Virus record (IMG/VR): IMGVR_UViG_3300023199_000127
Location: 116,793-180,792 of that record
Source of the DNA: a virus
Length of the DNA: 64,000 bases
Direction: 5' to 3' (one strand)
Shown: positions 19,172-46,737 of the stretch, in pieces
Position numbering within the stretch: position 1 is the stretch's first letter
Layout: each line of letters begins with the position of its first letter
Program-made: the position numbers and the translations under genes
The notes under the pieces: generated by a model
The model's database searches: none
Told to the model about the DNA's origin: nothing
The model's input: only the letters and a program-made list of their open reading frames with translations

Positions 19172-20197
19172 TTACACCAAATTGGGTGTACCACGGGGAG
19201 TGGTAAAGAGACCATCCTCCGCGTACCTAACAATTGCCTCGAAGTCACTCTCCCACGCCGTATATTCTGAGCAGCTTTGGCCGCCACGACGCAGAATGTA
19301 ACTCGGGTGATAGGTGAAGTACACCTTCGGGAATCCCTTGGGTACTCGACGCCGGCTCATGTCCTGCCAACCAAGCTTTGCACCTACTCGAACACGATCA
19401 AGATCCAGGGTGCCATCCTCGATGGCGCTCTTCTCAAAGAACTGTACCCACGCCTCCTTGCCCAGAAGAACAATCACCTTGAGTGTCTTCTGGCCTACGA
19501 GGATCTTGAGCTGCTCACCAAACCTATCACGACACGCCGCCAGCTCCGAGAGCTGCGGCGGGCACACACGGCCAGTCATGGGATCTATAGGACGACAACA
19601 GACAGCGTTCATCAAGTAGCTATCTGTCACTCTATTGATCCCAACCTCATTCAAGATCTTGGTCAGCTCCTCACCAGCAGGGCCTACAAAGGGCCTGCCA
19701 TTCTGGTCCTCATGAAAAGCAGGAGCTTGTCCTACGAAGACATACGTTGGATCAATGGGATTACCCGATCCAAGAACGACCTGGGTTCTATTCTGGGAGA
19801 GTGGACACAGTTGGCATCCACGATACCTTTCCCAAAGGTCAGCCATAGGTCCAATGATGCCAGTTTGTGCTGCACCATAAATGCTCTCTTCAGAAGGACC
19901 AGCATTCATATCAGTACCAGGACCGGATTCATTACTATCTGAAGGCACACTAGTGACTTCAAAAGAACTCGTCACAAAAGTACCGGGAACTCGAATGTCA
20001 TCAGGCCCAAGCATCTCAGTGCCCTGATAAGGATGAAGCACATCAGTCGGCTCGGGCGAGATTTCAACTTCATTCAGAGGAATCATCTCTCTGCGCACCT
20101 CTCCAGTTTCCTTTTGAATAGACTCATCCGCCGCACCATCTCGAAGATAGCGAGCAGATTGGTCTTCCAGGATACGCTCGTACTTATTGTTGCTCAT
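19172..20197 (-). CDS. uracil-DNA glycosylase, family 4/5 (Fe-S type)
   Basis: 341 aa. Catalytic domain from about residue 120: CQLCPLSQNRTQVV (first cluster cysteines), VGQAPAFHEDQNGRPFVGP (motif 1), NAVCCRP, and TYHPSYILR (motif 2). It removes uracil from DNA, protecting the genome against deamination or misincorporation. A 115-residue N-terminal extension without known domains is unusual for family 4 (normally about 200 aa) and may dock to a partner. Confidence 0.88.
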   Translation of the reverse strand: MSNNKYERILEDQSARYLRDGAADESIQKETGEVRREMIPLNEVEISPEPTDVLHPYQGTEMLGPDDIRVPGTFVTSSFEVTSVPSDSNESGPGTDMNAGPSEESIYGAAQTGIIGPMADLWERYRGCQLCPLSQNRTQVVLGSGNPIDPTYVFVGQAPAFHEDQNGRPFVGPAGEELTKILNEVGINRVTDSYLMNAVCCRPIDPMTGRVCPPQLSELAACRDRFGEQLKILVGQKTLKVIVLLGKEAWVQFFEKSAIEDGTLDLDRVRVGAKLGWQDMSRRRVPKGFPKVYFTYHPSYILRRGGQSCSEYTAWESDFEAIVRYAEDGLFTTPRGTPNLV

Positions 20198-23028: not shown

Positions 23029-25368
23029 TTAGCGTTTCGTCCTATGAGATTTACGCTTATACGTAGCCCGATGCTGTCTCCCTACCTTGGAATCGCCATG
23101 GAACTTGTCCCTGATACCATGCAGGGCAAAGTCATGTCCATCCTTAGGCTTCAAGGAGGATTGCTCAGTGAGACAGATAGCAGAGCAGGCTGAGTCATTC
23201 AGCTCAGCCTGCATGGCCTCACTAAGAGCAACGCGGAACTTATACATCTGACCCATCCTCGGGTCGTCCTGACCACTCAGGTTAATGTCAGTCTGAATTG
23301 TCAGTCTGCGATCACGTGCTGCGATCACAGTCACACGCTTCAGCATCTTCTGCATTGCTGCTTTGGTAGCCGGCCTGATGTTCTTGTTCGTGATCGCTCT
23401 GTTGTAGCAATCAGTAAAGAGCTTGTGTACCATCTGCTTGTTGGCATACCGAGTGTTGAACTCAGCATTGATAGCCCGAGCAACCTCCATGTCCTTGGCG
23501 ATACGTTCCCGTGCTTCCTGAATGATCTGAGGATCACGCAGATCCATAAAGGGAATCCATCGCCAGGTACGAGCTGTCTTTACTCTCTCATGGGGGTTGT
23601 TCGGGTTTTTCTTCTTGAGTCTCAGCTCTCTCTTGCCAGCGATCTTGTGCCAATAGAAGGCCCAAGCCAGCTTGTTCCATAGAACAAGCGGGAACTCATT
23701 GGCAGGCACACAGAAGCTGTAGCTCTGGGAGAAGGTGTGCTGGTCGAACCGTGTCTCCTCCTCGCCAGTGAAGGGATCATTCTGCTTTATCCAGCAACTC
23801 GCACAGTACTCATTCAGCCGGCGAATGCAGTCAAGCCTATCCTGATCCAAGGGGACGCCAATATTCCCCTGCCAGAGCGTAGAGAAGATGAGTACACCCT
23901 GTACATCCACCAGCTTAGCTTCGTGCAGTCCTCCTGCCTGAATCTCAGCCAGTTGATCCAGCGTTTCCTGTGCTCTGCGGCGACGTTTCTTACGTTTCTT
24001 CTTCTCTTTCTTCTCGGACTTATAGTCCTCCGCTTCCTCGTCAGTACGAATGTCCATAGCCCATTCATGAGCCAACGTGGCATAATTCGTCACATTGTCA
24101 GTAATGTTGACGAGGTGGAAGGATCCTTTAATCTCCTTCTGGACTACGAGAGAGTCTTCCTCTTCACGGACGACTCGTAGTGTGGTTTCTCGACCATCCT
24201 TGAGGACAAGAGCTCCGCGTTCGCCAACGGCGGGAGCGGAGCTGATCAGGTCCTTAGGGACAGGCTTGAATTTCGAGAGCACACGAGCGCCACGTCCTAC
24301 CATCTGCATCCACAGGCTGCGAGAGATAGTGGGACGGGCCAACATGATAGTGTTCAGACTCTTACAGTCGAAGCCTTCGGTATAGATCATGCAATTGATC
24401 AACACCTTGGACTCTGTGTGAGGACCACTATCCAGCCATTTGATGATGCGTTTGCGCTCTGCTTTATCAGAAGACCCGGAGATCATACGAACATCCAGGT
24501 TAGGGTCCCGCTTCTTGAATGCCTGGACCAGGTCGCGAGCGTGTTGCACATCACAGGCGAAGACCAGTGCTTTACCATACTGGTCCTTCTTGCTGAGATA
24601 CTCGTCTGCAATCGCTAGGTTGCGTCGCGGTGTATTCAACCTAGTCAGTGCCTTGGCAGTGTAGTCGCCACCACGAACATCAAGCTTGCCGATGTTCTCG
24701 CTCGTCCTCATCTCATAGTAGATGGGACGAGCGAGATATCCCTGCCGAACAAGATCGATGAAGCCAATCTGATAGAGGATGTTGCCATCATATGCTAGAG
24801 GCCTCTCATCAAGACGCTCTGGCGTTGCTGTCAGGCCAAGGTTGCGATGGATCAATCCCATCTTCTCAATCTTGCCAACCGTACGAATGTATTCGTTCGT
24901 ATACTTGGCCTCATCCTGATGAGGCATAGCAAAATGATGGCATTCATCGATGACTACAAGCCACGTTCTGCCTGTTGCCTTATGCAGTGCCTTGAGCTGA
25001 GTTGGCAGTTTCTTGCAGGACATGATCATGCCCAGCACAACATCGCCCGTGGCATCCTTGGCTTCACTAATAGCCTCCGACTTATCCGCCAAACGAATCT
25101 TGTCGGCGCACCACGTGGTGAGTCGTTTGCCAGGAGCCACAGTGCGGAATGCTTCTGCGGCTTGCTTGATTAGCTCCTCACGATGTGCAATCCAGAGGAT
25201 ACCAACGTTCATCTTCTTCTGGATTCCAGAGCACAAGAAGCTAGCTGTGAAGGTCTTACCTCCACCAGTAGGGAGAACGACGACGCCCTTAGACAGGCCC
25301 TGCTTGTAGAAGCCATGCACTACAGCTTGTATAGCCTTTGTCTGATAGGGGCGTAGCTTAATCGTCAT
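23029..25368 (-). CDS. SF2 DNA helicase/ATPase (UvsW/Rad25-like)
   Basis: 779 aa. Motif I LPTGGGKTFTA, motif II VIDECHH (DECH box), motif III LTATPERLDER, motif VI QMVGRGARV in residues about 35-380. The RecA-like pair is followed by a lysine-rich stretch (KKEKKKRKKRRRR) and a 300-residue C-terminal region without recognised motifs. Such enzymes remodel branched DNA or unwind R-loops. It overlaps the DnaE stop as ATGA, so polymerase and helicase are co-expressed. Confidence 0.85.
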   Translation of the reverse strand: MTIKLRPYQTKAIQAVVHGFYKQGLSKGVVVLPTGGGKTFTASFLCSGIQKKMNVGILWIAHREELIKQAAEAFRTVAPGKRLTTWCADKIRLADKSEAISEAKDATGDVVLGMIMSCKKLPTQLKALHKATGRTWLVVIDECHHFAMPHQDEAKYTNEYIRTVGKIEKMGLIHRNLGLTATPERLDERPLAYDGNILYQIGFIDLVRQGYLARPIYYEMRTSENIGKLDVRGGDYTAKALTRLNTPRRNLAIADEYLSKKDQYGKALVFACDVQHARDLVQAFKKRDPNLDVRMISGSSDKAERKRIIKWLDSGPHTESKVLINCMIYTEGFDCKSLNTIMLARPTISRSLWMQMVGRGARVLSKFKPVPKDLISSAPAVGERGALVLKDGRETTLRVVREEEDSLVVQKEIKGSFHLVNITDNVTNYATLAHEWAMDIRTDEEAEDYKSEKKEKKKRKKRRRRAQETLDQLAEIQAGGLHEAKLVDVQGVLIFSTLWQGNIGVPLDQDRLDCIRRLNEYCASCWIKQNDPFTGEEETRFDQHTFSQSYSFCVPANEFPLVLWNKLAWAFYWHKIAGKRELRLKKKNPNNPHERVKTARTWRWIPFMDLRDPQIIQEARERIAKDMEVARAINAEFNTRYANKQMVHKLFTDCYNRAITNKNIRPATKAAMQKMLKRVTVIAARDRRLTIQTDINLSGQDDPRMGQMYKFRVALSEAMQAELNDSACSAICLTEQSSLKPKDGHDFALHGIRDKFHGDSKVGRQHRATYKRKSHRTKR

Positions 25369-28300
25369 TCTCTTACCTCGCATCCGATCTTGGTAAGCTC
25401 GTTGCGTATCCTCTTGGTGTTCTGCACCATGCCAATACGCATGGTGATGTAGTGTCTATTCTTGCTGGGCAAAGTTACGAAGAGCGGTACCCGGCCAGGG
25501 TATCGCTTGGATAGGTCAGTCACTTGGCGTGCCATGTCCCAATCCCAAGCGATCACACGTATGCGATGTGTCTCTACATTCTGCCCGGGTTCAACATCTT
25601 CGCGATAACACCCAGCCAGAAGCTCGATCTCCATTGCCTCACGATCTGCCGCTCGCATCTCTCCAGCATCGGTAACGTCTACAGTATCACTAACATCGAA
25701 CAAAGGTACCGTCTTCACCTGCTTCTTTGCTTGCTGCTTATGCGCCTTGTACAGGTCCTTGAGAGCAGTAAGTAGGCCAAGACGAGAACCCCAGTCATCA
25801 CAACACCCAGACTGGATGAGCTTCTCCACATCTACTTGACGTAGGGTGGAGTGGACACGCTTGACTAGGTCAGGCAGATCCTTGAAGGGTCCGCCTGCAT
25901 TGCGGATCTCAACAAGCTTATCTGTAGCTGACTTAAGGCCTGCAATAGAGCGCAGGCCAAAGCGTACATTCTCACCCTCAGGAAGTGCGCCGGCACCACT
26001 CTTATTGATATCCGGAGCTAGTACGAGGATGCTCTGCGTCATGCAGTCACGTACATACTTCTTGACTTGCTTGGAATCCTCGCCATCTACCGTGAGTAGA
26101 GCAGCCATGTACTCCACCGGGTAGTAAGCCTTCAGATAAGCAGTCTGGTATGTCAGCTTGCCATAGCCTGCACTATGTGACTTGTTGAATCCATAGCGAC
26201 CAAAGGTTTCGATCTGATTCCACACCGCATGGGCTAGGTCTTCCGGATGTCCTTGTTCTAGAGCAGCGGGGATGAACTTCTCCTTCTCCTCTGCTACAAG
26301 CTCCGGCTTCTTCTTGGCTGTAGCCTTGCGAATCTTATCAGCCTGTCCATAGGTGTAACCACAGAAGGTCTGAGCAACTGATGTGAGCTGCTCCTGATAC
26401 ACCATGATTCCATAGGTCCAATTGAGAATGGGTTCGAAGCTTTCGTGCGGGTAAGTGATCGGAACACGTCCAAACTTACGCTCGATATACTCCGCCTCCA
26501 TCGTCAGCCCAGTCTCTGGGCTGACGTAGTCCATCGGACCAGGTCGATGGAGCGCAAGGATAGCATAGAGATCCTCGAAGTTGCGAGGAGCTAGTCGTAG
26601 GCATATCCTGCGCATCCCATCAGACTCGATCTGGAAGACGCCTAGCGTTCTTCCAGAACAAACCAGATCATAGATCTTCGGATCATCATAAGACTCGTCC
26701 TTCTCGGCGGGAAATTCATGATGATGTCCCTGGTTGAGCGCGATGTACTCAGTACATAGTCTGATGACATCCAGATAATCGATGACCAGGAAGTCATACT
26801 TCAACAGTCCTATGTCTTCCAGGTCATCCATTGAAACTTGCGTGAATCGCGGTGCATCCCAGTCCTGAGCCTTGCGTTCACGACTACCGACCATCGTTGG
26901 CACATAATCCTGGATGTTCTTGTCGGCAATCACAATGCCAGCAGCGTGACCAGAGATAGCACTTTTGGTCTTGTCAATCGCCTCACAAATATCAAGGAGT
27001 GCATTGCGTTCGTCCGGGTTCACCGAGACGAACGCCTTGAGGTCTTCGTTTTCCTCCCGCAACTCAGTCAGGTCGACTCGAAAGTCTCCCTGATCTTGCG
27101 GGAGCTTCTTGGTGAGCTCATTCAGCTCACCAGACTCGATGCCAAAGACCTCACCAGCCTTCTTGATAGCTGACCTGGTCTTAATGCTCTGGAATGTAGC
27201 AATCGCCGCCACATTGTCACGACCATACTTCTGGCGTACGTAGTCGATGACTTCGTGCCGGCGACTAGGTTCAAAGTCGATGTCCAAGTCAGGCATCGAT
27301 ACTCGCTCCGGGTTCATAAACCTCTCAAAGAGCAGGTTATGTCTGATGGGACAAAGATCTGTGATACCAAGGCAGTAGACCACAATGGATCCACCGCCGG
27401 AACCACGACCAGGTCCTACCAGAATGCCACGTTGGCGAGCCCAGCTGCAAAAGTCAGCGACAACCAAGAAGTACTGCGCTACCCCAATCTTCTTAATGAT
27501 CTCCAACTCATAGCGCACTCGAGACTTGTGCTCCTCAGTAGCTTCGGGGTACCTAGTCTTGAAACCCTCAGCCACGAGCCTGCGAAGCAGAGCATCGTGG
27601 TCTGCATACTGTTTCAGATCGATCTCTGGAAAGCGGAACACACCAGTTTCGAACTCGAAGTCACACATGTCTGCGATGTACTTCGTGTTCGTCAGCAGGT
27701 CATCTCGCTCACCATTTGGTGTCCAGAGCTGCTGCATCTCCTCGAACCCCTTAAGGTACAAGGAAGAAAGACCAGACCGCATGCCGCCTTGTGCCTTGCC
27801 GGATTTTACATCACGAAAAGAGTTGATTTGCAAGAGCACATCGTGGGCGGCATGCTGACTGGCGTCCAAGAAGTGGGCGTCGTTCGTAGCAATCATGGGG
27901 ACCCCAATCGCCTTAGCGATGGTGGTCGCATTATCAATGAACGCCCGCTCCATTAGGACTGCTTCTTCGCCGTGGTGCACACACTCAGGGGACATGTGTG
28001 ACGTGTCCTCCATGGTATGATCCATGACCTCTACGAAGAAACGGTCCGGAAAGATCTCTGCTAGTTTGCCACCAATCTCGATGGCTTTCTGGACATCGAC
28101 ATCCCACTTGACCTGCTCGTAGTTACGCCCCACTCGTCTCTTAAACTCTGGGGCACAAATATGGCGGGCAAGTGGTCCATTAATGCAGGCGGAGCTACAG
28201 ATTACACCCTCGCTATACTGAGCGAGGAGATCCAAGTCCAGACGAGGCTTCCGATAAAAGTACGGCGGCGTCTGCGCAATGGATAGCATGCGAGAGATGT

Positions 28301-28610
28301 TCTCGTAGCCACGCTGATTCATGGCCAGGAGAACAAGATGATCTGTGGGATTCTCTGGTGTGATCTTCTCCTGTACGGTGTCGTGGGCCATATAGGCCTC
28401 GACACCGATGATGGGTTTGATCTCCTGCTTCTTGCACTCTCGAGCAAACTCGAGCACACCACACATCATGCCATGGTCTGTGATACCAAGAGCAGGCATA
28501 CCCAGCTCTTTGGCACGAGCGACCAGGTCTTTGATGTGGTTCAGCCCATCCAACAACGAATATGTCGTGTGATTGTGCAGGCTGACAAAATCAGCAGGAG
28601 TTAGTCCCAT
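25365..28610 (-). CDS. dnaE: DNA polymerase III alpha subunit (DnaE type) with PHP domain
   Basis: 1081 aa. The PHP domain (1-270) retains metal-ligand motifs: HNHTTYSLLDG, ITDHGMMCG, GVEAYMA and ATNDAHFLDA, so it may have proofreading nuclease or structural metal function. The palm has MPDLDIDFE near 440 (two catalytic Asp) and KYDFLVIDYLD (third Asp) near 600; a fingers element reads FGRYGFNKSHSAGYG. The length is close to bacterial DnaE (about 1160) with a shorter C-terminus. It is the replicative polymerase of this phage and would work with the clamp at 7-8 kb. Confidence 0.93.
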   Translation of the reverse strand: MGLTPADFVSLHNHTTYSLLDGLNHIKDLVARAKELGMPALGITDHGMMCGVLEFARECKKQEIKPIIGVEAYMAHDTVQEKITPENPTDHLVLLAMNQRGYENISRMLSIAQTPPYFYRKPRLDLDLLAQYSEGVICSSACINGPLARHICAPEFKRRVGRNYEQVKWDVDVQKAIEIGGKLAEIFPDRFFVEVMDHTMEDTSHMSPECVHHGEEAVLMERAFIDNATTIAKAIGVPMIATNDAHFLDASQHAAHDVLLQINSFRDVKSGKAQGGMRSGLSSLYLKGFEEMQQLWTPNGERDDLLTNTKYIADMCDFEFETGVFRFPEIDLKQYADHDALLRRLVAEGFKTRYPEATEEHKSRVRYELEIIKKIGVAQYFLVVADFCSWARQRGILVGPGRGSGGGSIVVYCLGITDLCPIRHNLLFERFMNPERVSMPDLDIDFEPSRRHEVIDYVRQKYGRDNVAAIATFQSIKTRSAIKKAGEVFGIESGELNELTKKLPQDQGDFRVDLTELREENEDLKAFVSVNPDERNALLDICEAIDKTKSAISGHAAGIVIADKNIQDYVPTMVGSRERKAQDWDAPRFTQVSMDDLEDIGLLKYDFLVIDYLDVIRLCTEYIALNQGHHHEFPAEKDESYDDPKIYDLVCSGRTLGVFQIESDGMRRICLRLAPRNFEDLYAILALHRPGPMDYVSPETGLTMEAEYIERKFGRVPITYPHESFEPILNWTYGIMVYQEQLTSVAQTFCGYTYGQADKIRKATAKKKPELVAEEKEKFIPAALEQGHPEDLAHAVWNQIETFGRYGFNKSHSAGYGKLTYQTAYLKAYYPVEYMAALLTVDGEDSKQVKKYVRDCMTQSILVLAPDINKSGAGALPEGENVRFGLRSIAGLKSATDKLVEIRNAGGPFKDLPDLVKRVHSTLRQVDVEKLIQSGCCDDWGSRLGLLTALKDLYKAHKQQAKKQVKTVPLFDVSDTVDVTDAGEMRAADREAMEIELLAGCYREDVEPGQNVETHRIRVIAWDWDMARQVTDLSKRYPGRVPLFVTLPSKNRHYITMRIGMVQNTKRIRNELTKIGCEVRE

Positions 28611-29364: not shown

Positions 29365-30582
29365 ATGCACGACAGCATCAAATTCTGTGATCACTGCGAT
29401 GAGTCCATTCCTATGGGAATGGACCGACGCCAAAGAAAGGGCAAGACGAAGTGTGGCCGATGTGCCGATCGTCTTACACGTTTCTGGCGTTTCTGGGTTG
29501 TGCTCATGTTCATTGGTACTCTCACTGCTGCTAAAGCTGTGCACCAAGGGTCTGTGAAGCGAGACAATGTCGTGAAGCAATATGTTCACGACGGTCTTCG
29601 CTTTCTAGACGGTCGTCTGACCCTGACCATCAAAGCTACCATTCAGGCCCTTGGTGATCTGCAGAGTCAGATGGACATACGTCTTGCAGAGCATCGCAGA
29701 TTGAAGGTAGAGCTGGAAAAGGTCAAGCTCGATTTTCAAGCTGCGAAAAAGCAGATTGCTCAGCGTATTACCTCCTCAACTAACAAGGTGGATGAGGTAA
29801 AACTTCATGTGAAGGAGCGCGTCAGCGTTCTTGAGTCCAAAGCTAAAGCGCTCGCTGCTGAGGTTGATACCATGAAACTCGTAAGCCCTGAAAAGCTTCG
29901 TCATGCGGCTAGGGCTACTGTCGGTATCAACGTTCGTGATAATCGCAGGTTGTGGAGATTCGGTAGCGGTATCATCTTCCACCGAGTCCATGAGGACAAG
30001 AAGTGGCGCTATTACGTACACACCTGCTATCACGTTATTGAAACCCATATCAATACCCGTGAGACGTCTAAGCATAACCCCGTGCTTAAGGTCACTGTCT
30101 TCGATGATGTTGGCCGCTTGATGCCCACTGGAGAATTCGAGCTTAGAACTGAGACCAACTTCAAACAAGCACAGTCTCATCGAGGTGTGACTGACTACTC
30201 AGTGCTTAGCTTTGTGTCCGAAAAGGAACATGCAATCATCCCCTATGCTACGGACGAGGAAAGCCGGTCTATGCAGATCGGCGATCCTGTCCTTATCACT
30301 GGTGTCCTGCCCACCGAGCGACCTGCCATCTACTATGGAACTGTCGCATCACTGACCTCGTCTGCATCGGGGTGCATGGCTATTCAGGGAATGGCATGGC
30401 CGGGAATGAGCGGTGGAGCCATCTTGGACCGAAGGACGATGAAAGTCATCGGCATCATGCAGATGTTACCCTCGAGGCCGGCGCCAGGTCCCTTCAGAGC
30501 TCCTGGTGCACTGAACAACGGTCTGGGCTACATTACCCAGATCCATCGCATCGACAAACGCTTCAGGCTCAAGATCAAGTAG
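29365..30582 (+). CDS. membrane-anchored trypsin-like serine protease with N-terminal zinc ribbon
   Basis: 405 aa, the only gene here on the plus strand. In order: zinc ribbon (CDHC at 8-11, CGRC at 30-33), a membrane helix at about 40-60 (FWRFWVVLMFIGTLTAAKA), a long coiled coil at about 100-175, then a trypsin-fold domain with triad candidates His223 (HTCYHV), Asp277 (VTDYSVL) and Ser349 (PGMSGGAI). It would be tethered with the ribbon on one side and the protease on the other side of the membrane. AGGAAAGGA precedes ATG 29365. A strong hairpin follows the stop. Target unknown; DegP-like quality control or defence interference are options. Confidence 0.8.
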   Translation: MHDSIKFCDHCDESIPMGMDRRQRKGKTKCGRCADRLTRFWRFWVVLMFIGTLTAAKAVHQGSVKRDNVVKQYVHDGLRFLDGRLTLTIKATIQALGDLQSQMDIRLAEHRRLKVELEKVKLDFQAAKKQIAQRITSSTNKVDEVKLHVKERVSVLESKAKALAAEVDTMKLVSPEKLRHAARATVGINVRDNRRLWRFGSGIIFHRVHEDKKWRYYVHTCYHVIETHINTRETSKHNPVLKVTVFDDVGRLMPTGEFELRTETNFKQAQSHRGVTDYSVLSFVSEKEHAIIPYATDEESRSMQIGDPVLITGVLPTERPAIYYGTVASLTSSASGCMAIQGMAWPGMSGGAILDRRTMKVIGIMQMLPSRPAPGPFRAPGALNNGLGYITQIHRIDKRFRLKIK

Positions 30583-33655: not shown

Positions 33656-34138
33656 GTCATTTGAATGTGGTTGTGAATTGGACCAATTGAGGGAAACAAA
33701 CTTCCCCCAAAAGAATTTCCAAGTCGGGTATGTGAGCGGCTCCCATCTGTCATTGAAGATCATTGGGTTTGCTCTATTGACTTGATAGAACTGATCACGT
33801 GACGCAACCAGTCCGCCAGGATTCGTGTCCATGAGCTTGTTGTACATCTGCCTACTAATGTGGATTCCCTCGATGTGAATCCACATCACTGCTTCACCTG
33901 CAAAAATACAGGTGAAGGTGGTTGCCTCTGCACACATGCGGCCGTGACTCATAGTCACTAGCCGATTTTGCAGGTCGTCCCAATGGATCCGATAATTGGA
34001 ATCCTCTGGACAGATGTAAATGTCACCATCCAGAAAGGTCCAGTCTTTGAATTGCTGGTACTCTTTCATGTAATAGTGATCACGAATAGCTCGAATGATG
34101 TGATCTGACTTTGCGGTGGGATCGGAGGTGCTACTCAT
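33647..34138 (-). CDS. hypothetical protein, 163 aa, downstream of RNA polymerase beta
   Basis: ATG 34138 with GGAG 10 bases upstream, overlapping the polymerase stop by 8 bases. Aromatic-rich (WTFLDGDIYICPED, WKFFWGKFVSLNW) and probably beta-rich. No family is recognised. Co-expression with the beta-like subunit makes an RNA polymerase accessory role possible. Confidence 0.6.
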   Translation of the reverse strand: MSSTSDPTAKSDHIIRAIRDHYYMKEYQQFKDWTFLDGDIYICPEDSNYRIHWDDLQNRLVTMSHGRMCAEATTFTCIFAGEAVMWIHIEGIHISRQMYNKLMDTNPGGLVASRDQFYQVNRANPMIFNDRWEPLTYPTWKFFWGKFVSLNWSNSQPHSNDNP

Positions 34139-35903
34139 GAGCAAATTTCTCCGGTTCCAGCACGCTAGCGACACTGCTGAAGTACTTCACACCAGCCATG
34201 TTCTCTCGCAGGGACGCATCGACAATATCGACGAGCCCATGAGATTCCATGGCGATCAGCTTTGCTAGGTCGCGCTTCTGCCCACCCAGACGCCCGCTAT
34301 TGATCGGTACGCCGTGGTGGTTGGTTGCCTGAGCGCCAGTCTGGACAGTTGCCTGCTCTTGAGCCAGCTTATCCAGCCGAATCATGTACACAGGAGCGAC
34401 AAAGGTGCATTCGGGCAGCGGCATCTTCTTCAAGAAGAGCTGCTCCTTGGCGCCATAACCCTCTTGCACCAAAGTCTCGAAAGACGGCGCATCATGGTTG
34501 TACTTCAAGAAGAGCTGTTGACCATGAGGCATAATAAAACGCCTGCCCAACATGGAGCACTTCTTGTTTGCCATCATCTCCCACAGAAGTCCCATCGCCT
34601 TCCGGGCGATGATGGACTCCGGGCTAATGCAGGCATCCACGGTCTTGCCCTGCACAGTGTGCGGCATCTGATGATCCGGAACCACTCGCACCACTCCCTT
34701 GGTTCCGAATCGAGTAGTCACCTTGTCCCCAGTCTGCAGGGGGGCACGGCGAGCCAACCAGAAGCGCCACCTGAGAACAGGCTTGTCCTGCTTCATAGAG
34801 CTAGTCACCGTGATACGGTCGACCCAACCCTCGGTAAGCAGACGCTTGGAGTAGAACTCCACGCGCTGGCCATCGACATCAGTGCCGATAGCCAACAGGG
34901 CGCCTCGTTCCACCTCGTTACCCTGCTTGACCTTCAGTTCGAGCTTGCCATATGTTTCAATGGTCTCCGTGTGATAACGAATGGCCGCAGATTGCTTGGC
35001 GCAGGATTCACTGACGACAATGCAATCCTCCCACGTATAGCTCCTGAAATTCATCAGGGCGACATTCCAATGCTGGCCATCCAGATTGTGTAGCTCACCT
35101 GAGACCCACGGCTCATCCGGGTTCTCCATCTCCAGAGAACCTTCGAAAGAGGTTCTCAGGAGATGTGTGCGCAGATTCATATCCACCGCCAGGGCATTGG
35201 CCATGTTTGTGCCACACAAGGGCTTGTTGCTAGGGATGGCTTGTCCAGTAAGCTTGTCGATCTTCACGCCCTCGCACATGCGATAGGCGCGATTGATCTT
35301 GGAGCCCTGAGAAGTACTGGTGGGATCCAGGATGCCGAGCAGTTCCTCCGGGAAACGAAGGTCTTCCAGATCGAGGCTACTCGGGACATCAAGGTATACC
35401 AGCTCATGAAGCGACTGACGTGCCATCTTGTTCTGAGGCAAGATCGGGAAATATACGCTATCTGCGAAGATCTTCCGGATCTTGTGACGCGCAGTTTCAT
35501 TGTGCGGAGGGGTACCGGTGAAGTAGAAATCCCGCAGGACATCGCTCATGGCCTTCTGCAGTTGGTCAATGACCACCTGAGCCGGCGTGCGAAAGATCCA
35601 GCGTCGCTGTCCCGGGGGCGCTTGCATATCGGGATAACACCGATGTACCACAACGCGCTCACCGTCACGAAGCATAAAGCTCCCGTCGGGGTTGAACTTC
35701 GGCAAAGCGATGAGCAGCTTGCAGCTCTTATACTGCGTGCCACCACACAACCAGCCATAGAACTGGACCTGATACCAGTTCTCCTCCGGACGCACATACT
35801 CTGCAGGGCAATCCACATCCTTAATGGCCGGTGCCTTAACGGACTGGATCGCACACTGCATTCCGTGTGGATTCAAGTAGTGTTCGAGGACTTTAGTGTC
35901 CAT
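34131..35903 (-). CDS. RNA polymerase beta-subunit-like protein (compact, phage type)
   Basis: 590 aa against about 1150-1340 for bacterial RpoB. Conserved blocks: LDGQHWNVALMNFRSYTWED with CIVVSES at about 284-301 (equivalent of the VAFMPWNGYNFEDSI region), TGDKVTTRFGTKGVV at 391-405 (GDKxxxRxGxKGV, with the nucleotide-contacting Lys residues) leading to MPHTVQGKTVDACISP, and a C-terminal GRLGGQKRDLAKLIAMESHG resembling the end of beta. It forms one of the two double-psi barrels of the active centre. It is co-transcribed with the beta'-like gene. Confidence 0.8.
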   Translation of the reverse strand: MDTKVLEHYLNPHGMQCAIQSVKAPAIKDVDCPAEYVRPEENWYQVQFYGWLCGGTQYKSCKLLIALPKFNPDGSFMLRDGERVVVHRCYPDMQAPPGQRRWIFRTPAQVVIDQLQKAMSDVLRDFYFTGTPPHNETARHKIRKIFADSVYFPILPQNKMARQSLHELVYLDVPSSLDLEDLRFPEELLGILDPTSTSQGSKINRAYRMCEGVKIDKLTGQAIPSNKPLCGTNMANALAVDMNLRTHLLRTSFEGSLEMENPDEPWVSGELHNLDGQHWNVALMNFRSYTWEDCIVVSESCAKQSAAIRYHTETIETYGKLELKVKQGNEVERGALLAIGTDVDGQRVEFYSKRLLTEGWVDRITVTSSMKQDKPVLRWRFWLARRAPLQTGDKVTTRFGTKGVVRVVPDHQMPHTVQGKTVDACISPESIIARKAMGLLWEMMANKKCSMLGRRFIMPHGQQLFLKYNHDAPSFETLVQEGYGAKEQLFLKKMPLPECTFVAPVYMIRLDKLAQEQATVQTGAQATNHHGVPINSGRLGGQKRDLAKLIAMESHGLVDIVDASLRENMAGVKYFSSVASVLEPEKFAHE

Positions 35904-35909
35904 GCTTCC

Positions 35910-36242
35910 CTAACCTCCGTTGCTCTTGTTGTATTTGTTGAGCTTGGCGTAAGCTTCCTCCGTAGCTTTCCAGCCAAGAGCCTTGCACACAATGTCAATG
36001 GTCTCCATATCGACTGAGGGCCCACCAGCGACTTCGATAGTGACTTCCCTATCGGTCAGCTCCCGGCCTTCGTTGTCATACACCTGACAGGTGAGCTTGA
36101 CCATGCCGATATAGCGACTATTCTCGTGGACCTCATCGTACTCAATGTAGTCAAGGAGATCTTTGTGTATCTCCTTGTTCTCTTCGTTCAAGATCTCGTG
36201 CTCCCTTTCCTTGTCGAAGTGTCTATCCTGTTTGCTGCTCAC
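35910..36242 (-). CDS. small protein between beta' and beta genes
   Basis: 110 aa. GTG 36242 with AAGGTG upstream, overlapping the beta'-like stop by 20 bases. A highly charged N-terminus (HFDKEREHEILNEENKEIHK) is followed by a beta-rich part and a Lys/Asn-rich end. No family is recognised. Its position between the two large subunits invites the idea of an omega- or alpha-like polymerase subunit, untested. Confidence 0.6.
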   Translation of the reverse strand: MSSKQDRHFDKEREHEILNEENKEIHKDLLDYIEYDEVHENSRYIGMVKLTCQVYDNEGRELTDREVTIEVAGGPSVDMETIDIVCKALGWKATEEAYAKLNKYNKSNGG

Positions 36243-37908
36243 TGAGCACCTTCTTGAGACGCTCAGTGTGAAGCGTCCATGCCTTGTTACAGACACCAAA
36301 CTTGTCAGTGTCGCCATGTCTGAGGAGTCGCACAGCCAGACCCTGGCTGTAGCGATCTCCCGAAATCATTTCGTGGATGGGGCAGTACCGCAGGGAAATC
36401 TGCGTAAGTCCCACGAATCGCTCCGGCAACATGTTGTTGAACCGCTCCATCATGTTGATGCCGAACTGCTTGCGCAACTTCTTGCGCAGCATATCGAAGA
36501 TGGTATCGGCGGTCATACTACCAACTTGTCGAAGGAGACGCATGTAGGACTTCTTCTCCTTGCCTGCCGGCAAGATCTCATCCAGGACTATTCGTGCGGG
36601 ATACACGAGATAGATGACCTCAATCATCGTCTTTGCTTCCCGCGGCTCAATGTCCAGTTTCTGCAGCTCGGCAAGTGCTTCCTCTACAGATGCTTGTGCC
36701 CATGCACCGGTCTGATTGAGGATCTTCAGGACATGGAAGGGGTCATATCCTGCTTCGTGCTTGGAATCCAGCAGGATTTGCTGCAGTCGCTCCGAAAGAT
36801 AGTTTGCTGAACGGAGCCACGTACGATTCCAACCAGCCAGCACCTTCAGGCGATTGGAGGCTGCTCCGATGGGACCCAAAAGGGTCTTCATCTTCAGCAT
36901 GTCATGATTCTTATCGAGCGTCCTCTCCCACCACTCATCGACTTCCAGAGCCGATGCCATCTCATCGCACGCCTCATGGAGGCCTTCCTTGCCGCTTGTG
37001 CGATCGATAGTCTTCCAGCCATCGGGACATGCATCCAGAACCTGCTCAGGTGAGATCGAGAAACCAGTTGTGACAAACCGCTCCTTACCATCCTCCTTGG
37101 CACGCTCCCAGTCAACCACTTGGCTGGGATTTTCGTACAGAGCCTGCTTGGACCAGCCGCCATGCACGAGGCAAAATTCCATCAAATGGTCCTTTGCCTC
37201 CTGCTGGCACTCCGGCGTATCTGGAATCGGGAACCAATAGAGACAATCACCATCGCAGTCTGCACCAAGCTGCTCAAAGAGCAGCGGATGCATCTCGATG
37301 ACGTCGTCAGGGCTCTTCATAGCTCTGACGATCTCCAGTGACCCGTCCCAGATAGTGGGATCGCGGCCGATCATGATGAAATCACCATGCTGCAGTTCTG
37401 CATGGTCGAAGAACTTGCCCGGCAGCGCAACGTACTCCGGATCATGGTTAGCGTTCGGGACGAGCACAGCTCGTCCAGATCGCTTCACACGTGCACCGAC
37501 AATCACGTTACGAATCAGGCCATTCTTCGAGGCCAGATGGCTGATGGCTCGCTTCTGATAAGCTGACACCATCGCCTGAATGGCCTTCTCCGGCGCCTCC
37601 CCTTCCTCATACTGAAGGAGTACCCGCGCCAACTGATTGGCAGTGAACATCAGCGGGTGCACTGTCCACAGGCCCTGGTTATTCTGGACCTCGATGGGCG
37701 GCACACGAACCCGGTTGATCTGCCGGCCTGCGTAATCCGCTACTGCCACTGGCAGCTGGATCCACGCACCGTTCTTACGGATCTTCGGATCCAGAACGGT
37801 ACCATCGATGTTCTGCACCTTCTCCGGATCAATGATCGGAGGTAGGTCATCGGTGAGGACGGGCCTACCGTCCACATTGGTTTCGGCGATGATTACCGGA
37901 TGAATCAC
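36223..37908 (-). CDS. RNA polymerase beta'-subunit-like protein (catalytic, compact)
   Basis: 561 aa against about 1200-1400 for bacterial RpoC. Visible motifs: NGLIRNVIVGARVKRSGRAV at about 129-148 (counterpart of the RNLLGKRVDYSGRSV segment), then GRDPTIWDGS, EMHPLLFEQL and GADCDGD with Asp217, Asp219 and Asp221, the metal-binding triad of NADFDGD. The active site is therefore intact although clamp, jaw and most insertions are missing. No sigma-like or alpha-like gene is evident. Together with the beta-like gene it should give a phage-specific RNA polymerase. Confidence 0.82.
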   Translation of the reverse strand: MIHPVIIAETNVDGRPVLTDDLPPIIDPEKVQNIDGTVLDPKIRKNGAWIQLPVAVADYAGRQINRVRVPPIEVQNNQGLWTVHPLMFTANQLARVLLQYEEGEAPEKAIQAMVSAYQKRAISHLASKNGLIRNVIVGARVKRSGRAVLVPNANHDPEYVALPGKFFDHAELQHGDFIMIGRDPTIWDGSLEIVRAMKSPDDVIEMHPLLFEQLGADCDGDCLYWFPIPDTPECQQEAKDHLMEFCLVHGGWSKQALYENPSQVVDWERAKEDGKERFVTTGFSISPEQVLDACPDGWKTIDRTSGKEGLHEACDEMASALEVDEWWERTLDKNHDMLKMKTLLGPIGAASNRLKVLAGWNRTWLRSANYLSERLQQILLDSKHEAGYDPFHVLKILNQTGAWAQASVEEALAELQKLDIEPREAKTMIEVIYLVYPARIVLDEILPAGKEKKSYMRLLRQVGSMTADTIFDMLRKKLRKQFGINMMERFNNMLPERFVGLTQISLRYCPIHEMISGDRYSQGLAVRLLRHGDTDKFGVCNKAWTLHTERLKKVLSEQQTG

Positions 37909-45052: not shown

Positions 45053-45739
45053 CTAGACAGTCGGAATGTTCCCAGGATCATTGACCCAAAACTTGTCATG
45101 GATCCAGTTGTAAAGCTGAACAGCATTACCAACACCATCCTCAGCACGATGGTTATCAGTAGGCTTAGGCTTCTTGAACTGATAACGCTCCTTGGCACTT
45201 TCCCACAAGCTCGAAACATCAATGTTGCGATGATGCAGAATGCTTTCGAAGAACGGCATATGCCGTTGCAAATGCACACGATCAGTCCAGACTGAATTGC
45301 CGAAGAGCTTGGCCTCGCCAAGCTCAAAGTGCTGCAGGGTCCAATTTGTCAGCTCACGCTCAACCTTGGCTAGATCAATACCAGATATGTAAGACAGAGT
45401 AGTAAGCTCATTCCCTCGAATATTCTTCCTGCGTTCCTCTTCAGTCTCAGAAATAGGACCAGTACCGCAGTGAAATCTGCTATTTAGAATCGCATCAATG
45501 TCACCATGAGCGTTCTTGCAGAACTGGTCCATGTCTCTGAGCTGACTGTATGAGGCGCGGATAACCCACTTCTTCCAATCAACAATCTTGACCCACCCAG
45601 TGACTTCTCGATCATCTCTCAGTGTAGCTGCACAGATCTCGAGAAGTACACTGTTCGGATCTTGACAGAGACCTGTGGTTTCCAGATCAAGTGCAAGCCA
45701 GGGCTTCAGTTTCTCATGTCCCGCTTTAGTTTTCGGCAT
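45053..45739 (-). CDS. DEDDh 3'-5' exonuclease, oligoribonuclease-like
   Basis: 228 aa. ATG 45739 overlaps the ThyX stop (TAATG). Exo I LALDLETTGL, exo II-like GNSVWTDRVHLQRHMPF, exo III HRAEDGVGNAV (His and Asp) fit the oligoribonuclease branch of DnaQ-type nucleases. It may degrade short RNA oligonucleotides or proofread for DnaE. It is slightly longer than oligoribonuclease (about 180 aa). Confidence 0.75.
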   Translation of the reverse strand: MPKTKAGHEKLKPWLALDLETTGLCQDPNSVLLEICAATLRDDREVTGWVKIVDWKKWVIRASYSQLRDMDQFCKNAHGDIDAILNSRFHCGTGPISETEEERRKNIRGNELTTLSYISGIDLAKVERELTNWTLQHFELGEAKLFGNSVWTDRVHLQRHMPFFESILHHRNIDVSSLWESAKERYQFKKPKPTDNHRAEDGVGNAVQLYNWIHDKFWVNDPGNIPTV

Positions 45740-46737
45740 TACAGACCCATCTTCTCGTTGAATTCGTTGACGCGTCGATCGGTGAAGCCACGTGCCTTCA
45801 GGCTGCAGGCAATTTCGTCTGCGCTGCACTCCCCATTACGGGCCAAATCGGAATTGTATATAAACTCCAGGATCGCTTCCTTCTCCTGACTGGTAAGAAA
45901 AGCGCCCCCTTGCATGTCTAGGAATACTTCCCATGTAAGCGGCACATGCTCCCGCACAAAGACCTCAATAGCCTCTGCAAAAGCTCTCATCTCGCCTTGT
46001 GCATGCGTATCTAGACGCAGACGAAGGAAGTGCATCAAGTTGTGGAGATCCATCTTCCAGTACCACTCAGTGTACTGAGTCAGAGGCAGAACAGTACGCG
46101 CGATCTCACGCGCAGTACCCTTGCTCAGCAACGTTTCGTACATAGCACGAGCTGATTTATTCTGCGCATCAATCGATGTGCGAATGTCTTTTAGTTCAGC
46201 ATGCAACTCGGGATCCAGTGCTGAAAGGATGCACTCTCTACGTGCCCACGCTTTCTCCGTGGGCGTATCAAAGTACGATGCAGACTCGGCGACCGTGGCC
46301 CAGTCAATAGCCGGATATGTACCTGACGTTGCCTCATTGACCATACGATTAATATCACCAAGGCTCCTGCCTTGCTTATTGGTCTTGGACTGGTTGGCAA
46401 TCGCACCAATCTCGGGAACCCAGAACATGTCCGGCATCTCTGAGTACCGCCCGCTGTACTCATTCAGCGAGGCGGTACGGTGACGCACCCACTGACGTGC
46501 CACAAAGATAGGCATACGAGCCACAAACTTGAACTCCACCATCTCAAACGGCGTCGTATGACGATGCCTCAAGAGATAGTTGATCAAGCCTGCATCCTCA
46601 CGGGTGGTCTTGGTACCCTTACCATAGCTTACACGAGCCGCTTGGACGATAGACGAATCATCGCCCATGACATCTACAAGGCCCACAAAACCATGGTTCA
46701 ACACCTTAATGTAGGGAAAGTCGGGGTAATCACTCAT
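45739..46737 (-). CDS. thyX: flavin-dependent thymidylate synthase
   Basis: 332 aa. The ThyX signature RHRTASLNEYSGRYS (RHRx7S) is present near residue 85, with the preceding FEMVEFKFVARMPIFVARQW. It converts dUMP to dTMP using FAD and NADPH. The length exceeds the usual 220-250 aa by a C-terminal extension from about residue 270. It feeds thymidylate kinase at 1.6-2.4 kb. Confidence 0.92.
   Translation of the reverse strand: MSDYPDFPYIKVLNHGFVGLVDVMGDDSSIVQAARVSYGKGTKTTREDAGLINYLLRHRHTTPFEMVEFKFVARMPIFVARQWVRHRTASLNEYSGRYSEMPDMFWVPEIGAIANQSKTNKQGRSLGDINRMVNEATSGTYPAIDWATVAESASYFDTPTEKAWARRECILSALDPELHAELKDIRTSIDAQNKSARAMYETLLSKGTAREIARTVLPLTQYTEWYWKMDLHNLMHFLRLRLDTHAQGEMRAFAEAIEVFVREHVPLTWEVFLDMQGGAFLTSQEKEAILEFIYNSDLARNGECSADEIACSLKARGFTDRRVNEFNEKMGL

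What the first reader, a model, noticed from the sequence alone, without database searches (positions are those of the whole stretch)
34131..37908. Compact two-gene multisubunit RNA polymerase with intact active site
Seen: a beta'-like protein of 561 aa with GADCDGD (three Asp) and a GARVKRSGR block, and a beta-like protein of 590 aa with the GDKxxxRxGxKGV block and the FEDxI-type region. Known: bacterial beta and beta' are over twice as long; phiKZ-like phage polymerases are split into several chains and YonO-type enzymes are single chains. Inference: a two-chain, minimal polymerase of a distinct layout, with a 110-aa protein encoded between as a candidate third subunit.
Basis: partly seen in the sequence, partly recalled or inferred. 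Interest (0 to 1): 0.82.

Follow-up and report, generated by a model that had tools for sequence, protein, structure and literature searches.

The report
Stripped-down two-gene phage RNA polymerase
A 181-kb phage carries two adjacent genes for shrunken versions of the two catalytic subunits of cellular RNA polymerase, about 1,150 amino acids in all with the catalytic residues intact, which would be an unusually small multisubunit RNA polymerase if the two proteins work together.

Summary
Both genes are real and correctly placed. The 590-aa protein is a collinear but heavily deleted RNAP beta subunit (Pfam Rpb2_6, E=9e-22; E=2e-31 against a profile of phage beta-beta' fusions). The 561-aa protein holds the beta' catalytic barrel (DxDGD, SGR, R-x-P), which AlphaFold2 models with pLDDT up to 94. 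The 180.8-kb genome closes on itself and is probably complete. No other beta/beta' piece, alpha or omega was detectable; the same profile finds the very diverged phiKZ pieces. A sigma-70-like factor is encoded elsewhere in the genome. No close relative was found in IMG/VR or GTDB scans. The two chains total 1,151 aa (130 kDa), against about 1,940 aa for the smallest other two-chain phage enzyme found here. Unresolved: the last ~310 residues of beta' are unassigned apart from a suggestive trigger-loop motif; no canonical bridge helix was found; a further core subunit too diverged to detect cannot be excluded. Most likely it is a non-virion, sigma-assisted phage RNAP: a new variant of a known kind, phage-encoded multisubunit RNAP.

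The parts
36223..37908 (-). beta'-like subunit, 561 aa (63.6 kDa), GTG start with GGAGG Shine-Dalgarno
37159..37488 (-). beta' double-psi beta-barrel region (residues ~141-250), modelled with high confidence; lacks the insert domain that other beta' barrels carry between the LP and R-x-P motifs
   Evidence: AF2 with 32-row alignment, block-mean pLDDT mostly 71-94 here; Foldseek best hit AR9 nvRNAP beta' 7s00_d
37471..37497 (-). GARVKRSGR motif (residues 138-146), equivalent of GKRVDxSGR
   Evidence: alignments; coordinates
37246..37266 (-). GADCDGD metal-binding loop (residues 215-221; Asp217, Asp219, Asp221), equivalent of NADFDGD
   Evidence: invariant Asp columns in alignment A6
36742..36831 (-). 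trigger-loop-like stretch (residues 360-389, ...LSERLQQILLDSKHEAG...); tentative
   Evidence: PSSM of phage trigger loops: score 12.4, 1 of 2000 shuffles reach it (p 0.003 with another window); not unique in the genome
34131..35903 (-). beta-like subunit, 590 aa (66.8 kDa), ATG start with GGAGG Shine-Dalgarno
35277..35345 (-). fork-loop-like stretch (residues 187-209, LGILDPTSTSQG; cf LGILDPSRTPESG in D181)
   Evidence: hhalign; PSSM p=0.0065
35019..35033 (-). WEDCI motif (residues 291-295; equivalent of the FED acidic pair of cellular beta)
   Evidence: invariant E-D in alignment A1
34884..34931 (-). VKQGNEVERGALLAIG (residues 325-340), remnant of the flap-base (SBHM insert) element of beta barrels
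   Evidence: hhalign alignment to phage beta profile
34689..34730 (-). GDKVTTRFGTKGVV catalytic block (residues 392-405; Lys394 and Lys402)
34236..34286 (-). GGQKRDLAKLIAMESHG (residues 540-556), equivalent of the C-terminal GxMEIxALEAHG motif of beta
35910..36317 (-). small ORF between the two genes (135 aa; 110 aa from a GTG at 36242); function unknown, no evidence that it is an RNAP subunit
   Evidence: no meaningful Pfam or PHROG match

Best explanation
The two genes encode the catalytic core of a phage RNA polymerase of the multisubunit (two-barrel) type, reduced to about 42% of the bacterial beta+beta' length. Mechanism: the beta' barrel supplies the Asp triad for Mg2+ (Asp217/219/221); the beta barrel supplies Lys394 and Lys402 and the WED acidic pair; the two barrels face each other to form the active site (homology: shown; complex: inferred). 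Most of the beta lobe, the N-terminal zinc/clamp part and the large inserts of beta', and alpha and omega are absent or unrecognisable. The genes sit in the replication/nucleotide block rather than among structural genes, so the enzyme is probably made after infection (non-virion) and transcribes middle or late phage genes. The phage's own sigma-70-like factor (genome 5453-6205) is the likely promoter-recognition partner (inferred).
For: Strong homology of beta over residues 54-573 (hhalign 99.5%). beta' barrel homology and catalytic residues with a confident AF2 barrel and Foldseek matches to AR9 and cellular beta'. The genome ends overlap, identical except for the length of a GT tract, so it is probably complete. 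No other RNAP piece among 854 ORFs, while the same profile finds phiKZ gp74 and gp80. No PF04997, PF04998, PF01193 or PF01192 match, with controls ringing. A sigma factor is present. Neighbours are RNase H, HIRAN, RNA ligase, RecA-like, DnaE and UvsW-like genes.
Against: Residues 250-561 of beta' are unassigned: no canonical bridge helix (p=0.39) and only a moderate trigger-loop match. The beta N-terminal protrusion motif is seen by eye only (p=0.33). AF2 outside the barrel is low-confidence. No homologue with the same architecture was found, so conservation as a pair cannot be tested. No promoter motif was found. No alpha-like assembly factor is known for it.
Confidence: 0.6

Rival explanations
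1. It is part of a larger split polymerase, as in phiKZ-like phages: a beta' C-terminal part (bridge helix, trigger loop, clamp) and/or a beta N-terminal part is encoded elsewhere in the genome but is too diverged to recognise.
For: No canonical bridge helix or clamp found in the 561-aa protein; many phages split beta' soon after the barrel (YerA41 556+518 aa; Arash and D181). The beta' protein itself is near the detection limit (E=5e-6).
Against: The genome appears complete; the profile that finds phiKZ gp74 (4e-9) and gp80 (5e-8) finds nothing else here; PF04998 negative even at E<=10; the 561-aa chain has ~310 residues after the barrel, including a trigger-loop-like stretch, so it is not cut at the usual split site.
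Confidence: 0.25
2. A two-gene version of the single-chain YonO / QDE-1-like clade (clade 2 two-barrel RNAPs).
For: The beta' barrel lacks the insert domain and the putative trigger helix follows the barrel after 163 aa, closer to the compact YonO-like spacing than to the 371 aa or more of other phage beta'.
Against: beta matches cellular and phage beta proteins strongly and keeps flap-base and C-terminal beta motifs; YonO-family profile similarity is limited to the DxDGD loop and the YonO post-barrel motif is not matched (p=0.86).
Confidence: 0.06
3. A degenerate, inactive or repurposed polymerase remnant.
For: Large deletions, long branch (3.2 changes per site), no relatives of the same architecture.
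Against: All catalytic residues, open frames and Shine-Dalgarno sites are kept in both genes; loss of peripheral domains with both active sites intact is not what decay looks like.
Confidence: 0.07
4. A primer-making RNA polymerase for replication rather than a transcription enzyme.
For: Gene position in the replication block, near a DnaE-type polymerase and RNase H.
Against: The genome also encodes a DnaG/Toprim-type primase (L006:3875-6382) and a sigma factor.
Confidence: 0.06

Closest known systems
Arash-type RNAP (Salmonella phage Arash gp206 beta+beta'N 1525 aa, gp216 beta'C 606 aa; Vibrio phage D181)
   Same: Phage-encoded beta/beta' homologues plus a sigma factor homologous to the one here (34% identity over 114 aa); beta core about 24-25% identical.
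   Different: Near full-length domains, beta fused to beta' N, total ~2,130 aa, genes among structural genes and the proteins found in the virion (PMC10585845).
mReC-like phage beta-beta' (single-chain fusions of 2,050-2,150 aa, L142 etc.; mReC described in PMC7481178)
   Same: Best beta match (L142, E=5e-21); weak grouping in the tree (79/93).
   Different: Single chain, about twice as long; those genomes share no DnaE or tail sheath and at most a weak terminase match. The mReC survey required at least 800 aa per subunit, so it would have passed over this enzyme.
L200/L214 phage RNAP (beta' 922-924 aa, beta ~1,020 aa, adjacent genes)
   Same: Two adjacent genes; closest beta' match (28%, E=2e-9; 35% in the barrel).
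   Different: Keeps zinc-binding N terminus, bridge helix, trigger loop and C-terminal part; about 1.7 times as long.
phiKZ / AR9 non-virion RNAP
   Same: Two-barrel multisubunit phage RNAP without alpha; AR9 beta' is the best Foldseek hit.
   Different: Each subunit split in two (PMC7598289), no sigma-70-like factor; total length far greater.
YonO / QDE-1 / P23-45 gp64 single-chain two-barrel RNAPs
   Same: Small size, DxDGD barrel.
   Different: One chain; for the YonO-like phage proteins tested, no sequence similarity beyond the DxDGD loop.

Membership tests
Multisubunit (clade 1) two-barrel RNAP | beta' barrel with DxDxD metal-binding triad | tested here: met
   GADCDGD with invariant Asp columns; AF2 barrel pLDDT up to 94
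Multisubunit (clade 1) two-barrel RNAP | beta barrel with the two catalytic lysines and GDK...KG block | tested here: met
Multisubunit (clade 1) two-barrel RNAP | SBHM (flap) insert in the beta barrel | tested here: inconclusive
   flap-base motif VKQGNEVERGALLAIG aligns, but only ~96 aa separate WEDCI and GDK; no structure of beta was predicted
Multisubunit (clade 1) two-barrel RNAP | insert domain in the beta' barrel upstream of the DxDGD loop (a common but not universal embellishment) | tested here: not met
   absent: alignment A6 shows a deletion of roughly 40-60 residues relative to the other phage beta'
Multisubunit (clade 1) two-barrel RNAP | bridge helix and trigger loop | tested here: inconclusive
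   trigger-loop-like stretch p 0.0005-0.003; bridge helix not found, p 0.39
phiKZ-like (Chimalliviridae/AR9) RNAP | beta and beta' each split into two or more chains | tested here: not met
   beta is one chain collinear to the C-terminal motif; no second beta' piece found
mReC/Arash RNAP | full-length beta and beta' (800 aa or more, or fused) | tested here: not met
   590 and 561 aa
YonO-like single-chain RNAP | both barrels in one polypeptide | tested here: not met
   two genes in different frames, each with its own start site
Self-sufficient two-protein enzyme | the two chains assemble and transcribe without other core subunits | not testable with these tools
   no complex prediction or biochemistry available

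The most novel reading that the evidence does not exclude
A functional sigma-directed multisubunit RNA polymerase whose whole core is two chains of 561 and 590 aa (130 kDa), without alpha, omega, beta lobe, beta' zinc/clamp N terminus or jaw: the smallest two-chain enzyme of the cellular type, marking out the minimal part set of multisubunit transcription.
Probability: 0.4. Interest if true: 0.8.

Novelty: new variant of a known kind. Interest (0 to 1): 0.6.

Why it matters
Cellular RNA polymerase is usually taken to need a large conserved core (alpha2, beta, beta', omega). A natural enzyme with both catalytic barrels on two short chains and a sigma partner would show which parts are dispensable, give a small scaffold for structural and synthetic work, and fill the gap between large multisubunit enzymes and YonO/RdRP-like single-chain ones. 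It also suggests that length filters such as the 800-aa cut used in the mReC survey (PMC7481178) may have hidden compact enzymes.

Tried and rejected
Close homologues: seed scans of IMG/VR with each protein and of GTDB genomes with beta, plus custom motif patterns, found no relative of the same architecture; the GADCDGD pattern brought in only ordinary beta' and YonO-like proteins as relatives. AF2 on the 561-aa protein alone was uninformative (pLDDT 34). YonO-like reading of the post-barrel region: considered after noticing LG...DSKH, rejected because the YonO motif matrix does not fit. A search for a shared promoter motif in 41 upstream regions gave nothing clearly above shuffles. The beta tree puts the protein on a very long branch with weak support, so no placement is claimed. 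I first read LPV..R at residues 52-63 as the clamp-helix motif; the matrix test did not support it.
Full report
OBSERVATION. The window is bases 116,793-180,792 of an IMG/VR record of 180,792 bp. Pfam gives PF00562 (Rpb2_6) for beta at E=8.8e-22 and PF00623 (Rpb1_2) for beta' at E=1e-4; PHROGs gives RNA polymerase families at 1.6e-19 and 3.5e-11; PDB searches give bacterial beta at 1e-11, and for beta' plant Pol V largest subunit (6.8e-6) and AR9 nvRNAP beta' (0.006).

IS THE GENOME COMPLETE? The last 151 bp of the window and the first 143 bp of the record are the same sequence apart from the length of a GT tract. The record therefore closes on itself and is probably a complete genome. That makes absence informative.

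ARE THERE OTHER RNAP PIECES? I collected 80 IMG/VR loci encoding phage beta or beta' and built a profile from 28 long beta-beta' fusion proteins. Against all 854 ORFs of 60 aa or more in this genome it hits only the two window proteins (2.4e-31 and 5.3e-6). The same profile detects the strongly diverged phiKZ gp74 (4e-9) and gp80 (5e-8), so a piece as conserved as those would have been seen. PF04997, PF04998, PF01193 (alpha) and PF01192 (omega) are negative, with all or nearly all control genomes ringing. One sigma-70-like gene is present at genome 5453-6205, with regions 1.2, 2 and 4, homologous to the sigma factors of Arash and D181.

ANATOMY OF BETA. hhalign places residues 54-573 along phage beta (99.5%, E=3e-22) with one long gap and other deletions. 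Recognisable: fork motif LGILDP at 189 (PSSM p=0.0065), WEDCI at 291, flap-base VKQGNEVERGALLAIG at 325, GDKVTTRFGTKGVV at 392, MPH...R434, and the C-terminal GGQKRDLAKLIAMESHG at 540. A protrusion-like LPKFNPDGSFMLRDGERVVVHR at 67 is visible by eye but not significant (p=0.33). So this is one collinear beta chain with most of the lobe lost, not a C-terminal fragment of the phiKZ kind.

ANATOMY OF BETA'. Residues ~122-249 align with 31 phage beta' barrels; K128, R146, P163, R182, P184, A216, D217, D219, G220 and D221 are invariant. The insert domain between the LP and R-x-P motifs, present in the other sequences of that alignment, is missing here. AF2 given this alignment models the barrel with block-mean pLDDT mostly 71-94; Foldseek returns AR9 nvRNAP beta' first, then cellular beta' subunits. 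The rest of the model is low-confidence and is not interpreted. After the barrel, LSERLQQILLDSKHEAG (371-387) resembles the trigger loops of other phage beta' (for example AEKTTQLGLRSKHLSG of Va2): score 12.4, reached by 1 of 2000 shuffles, but other proteins of the genome score similarly, so it stays tentative. It lies 163 aa after DGD, against 371 aa or more in 34 other phage beta'. No canonical bridge helix was found (p=0.39). The N-terminal zinc-binding and clamp part of beta' is absent from the chain.

CONTEXT. The genes lie in a minus-strand block with RNase H, HIRAN, T4-type RNA ligase, ThyX, RecA-like, UvsW-like helicase, DnaE-type DNA polymerase and ribonucleotide reductase genes, away from the structural genes (terminase, tail sheath, head proteins). 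In Arash the RNAP genes lie among structural genes and the proteins are abundant in virions (PMC10585845). A non-virion role is thus more likely here, by inference only.

SIZE. 590+561 = 1,151 aa, 130 kDa. Other phage enzymes seen here: L214 1,940 and L200 1,946 (two chains), YerA41 1,998 (three chains), Carin-5 2,010 (two chains), Arash 2,131 (two chains) and single-chain fusions of about 2,050-2,150.

RELATIONSHIPS. beta is closest to mReC-like fusions (L142, E=5e-21), beta' to L200 (E=2e-9). A beta-core tree puts it on a branch of 3.2 changes per site with weak support beside L142. Fourteen phages carrying those enzymes share no recognisable DnaE or tail sheath with this phage, and six share only a weak terminase match. 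Literature: jumbo phage RNAPs are split and lack alpha and recognisable initiation factors (PMC7598289); mReC enzymes were selected with at least 800 aa per subunit (PMC7481178); YonO is single-chain and without trigger-loop homology (PMC5467207); two-barrel RNAPs form two clades (PMC10770324); the beta-barrel SBHM insert and beta' barrel inserts are described in PMC7824862.

CONCLUSION. Shown: intact, expressed-looking genes for two short catalytic chains, both catalytic sites preserved, no other detectable core piece in a genome that closes on itself. Inferred: that they pair, that no cryptic further subunit is needed, that sigma is the partner, and that the enzyme is non-virion.

Noticed in passing
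window 63850-64000 and genome 1-143 (L001:1-143): The record's two ends are the same sequence except for the length of a (GT)n tract, so the genome closes on itself; an exact-repeat test would miss this.
   Followed up: yes
L142, L143, L150-L160 and others: Many IMG/VR phages with contigs of about 100-210 kb encode beta and beta' as one single chain of about 2,050-2,150 aa.
   Followed up: partly
L008:16745-22259 (Vibrio phage D181): A homing endonuclease gene sits between the two parts of a beta-beta' gene that gives a single uninterrupted match in phage D69, suggesting gene splitting by a mobile endonuclease.
   Followed up: no
window 25365-28610: The phage replicates with a DnaE-type (Pol III alpha) polymerase with PHP domain, 1,081 aa.
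   Followed up: partly
window 29365-30582: A plus-strand gene for a trypsin-like protease amid minus-strand replication genes.
   Followed up: no
window 19172-20197: Uracil-DNA glycosylase superfamily protein; together with ThyX (45739-46737) and a thymidylate kinase-like protein (1588-2361) it could point to modified or uracil-aware DNA metabolism.
   Followed up: no
L001:7551-10268: 905-aa protein upstream of the terminase gene with a Cas4-like exonuclease domain near its C terminus.
   Followed up: no
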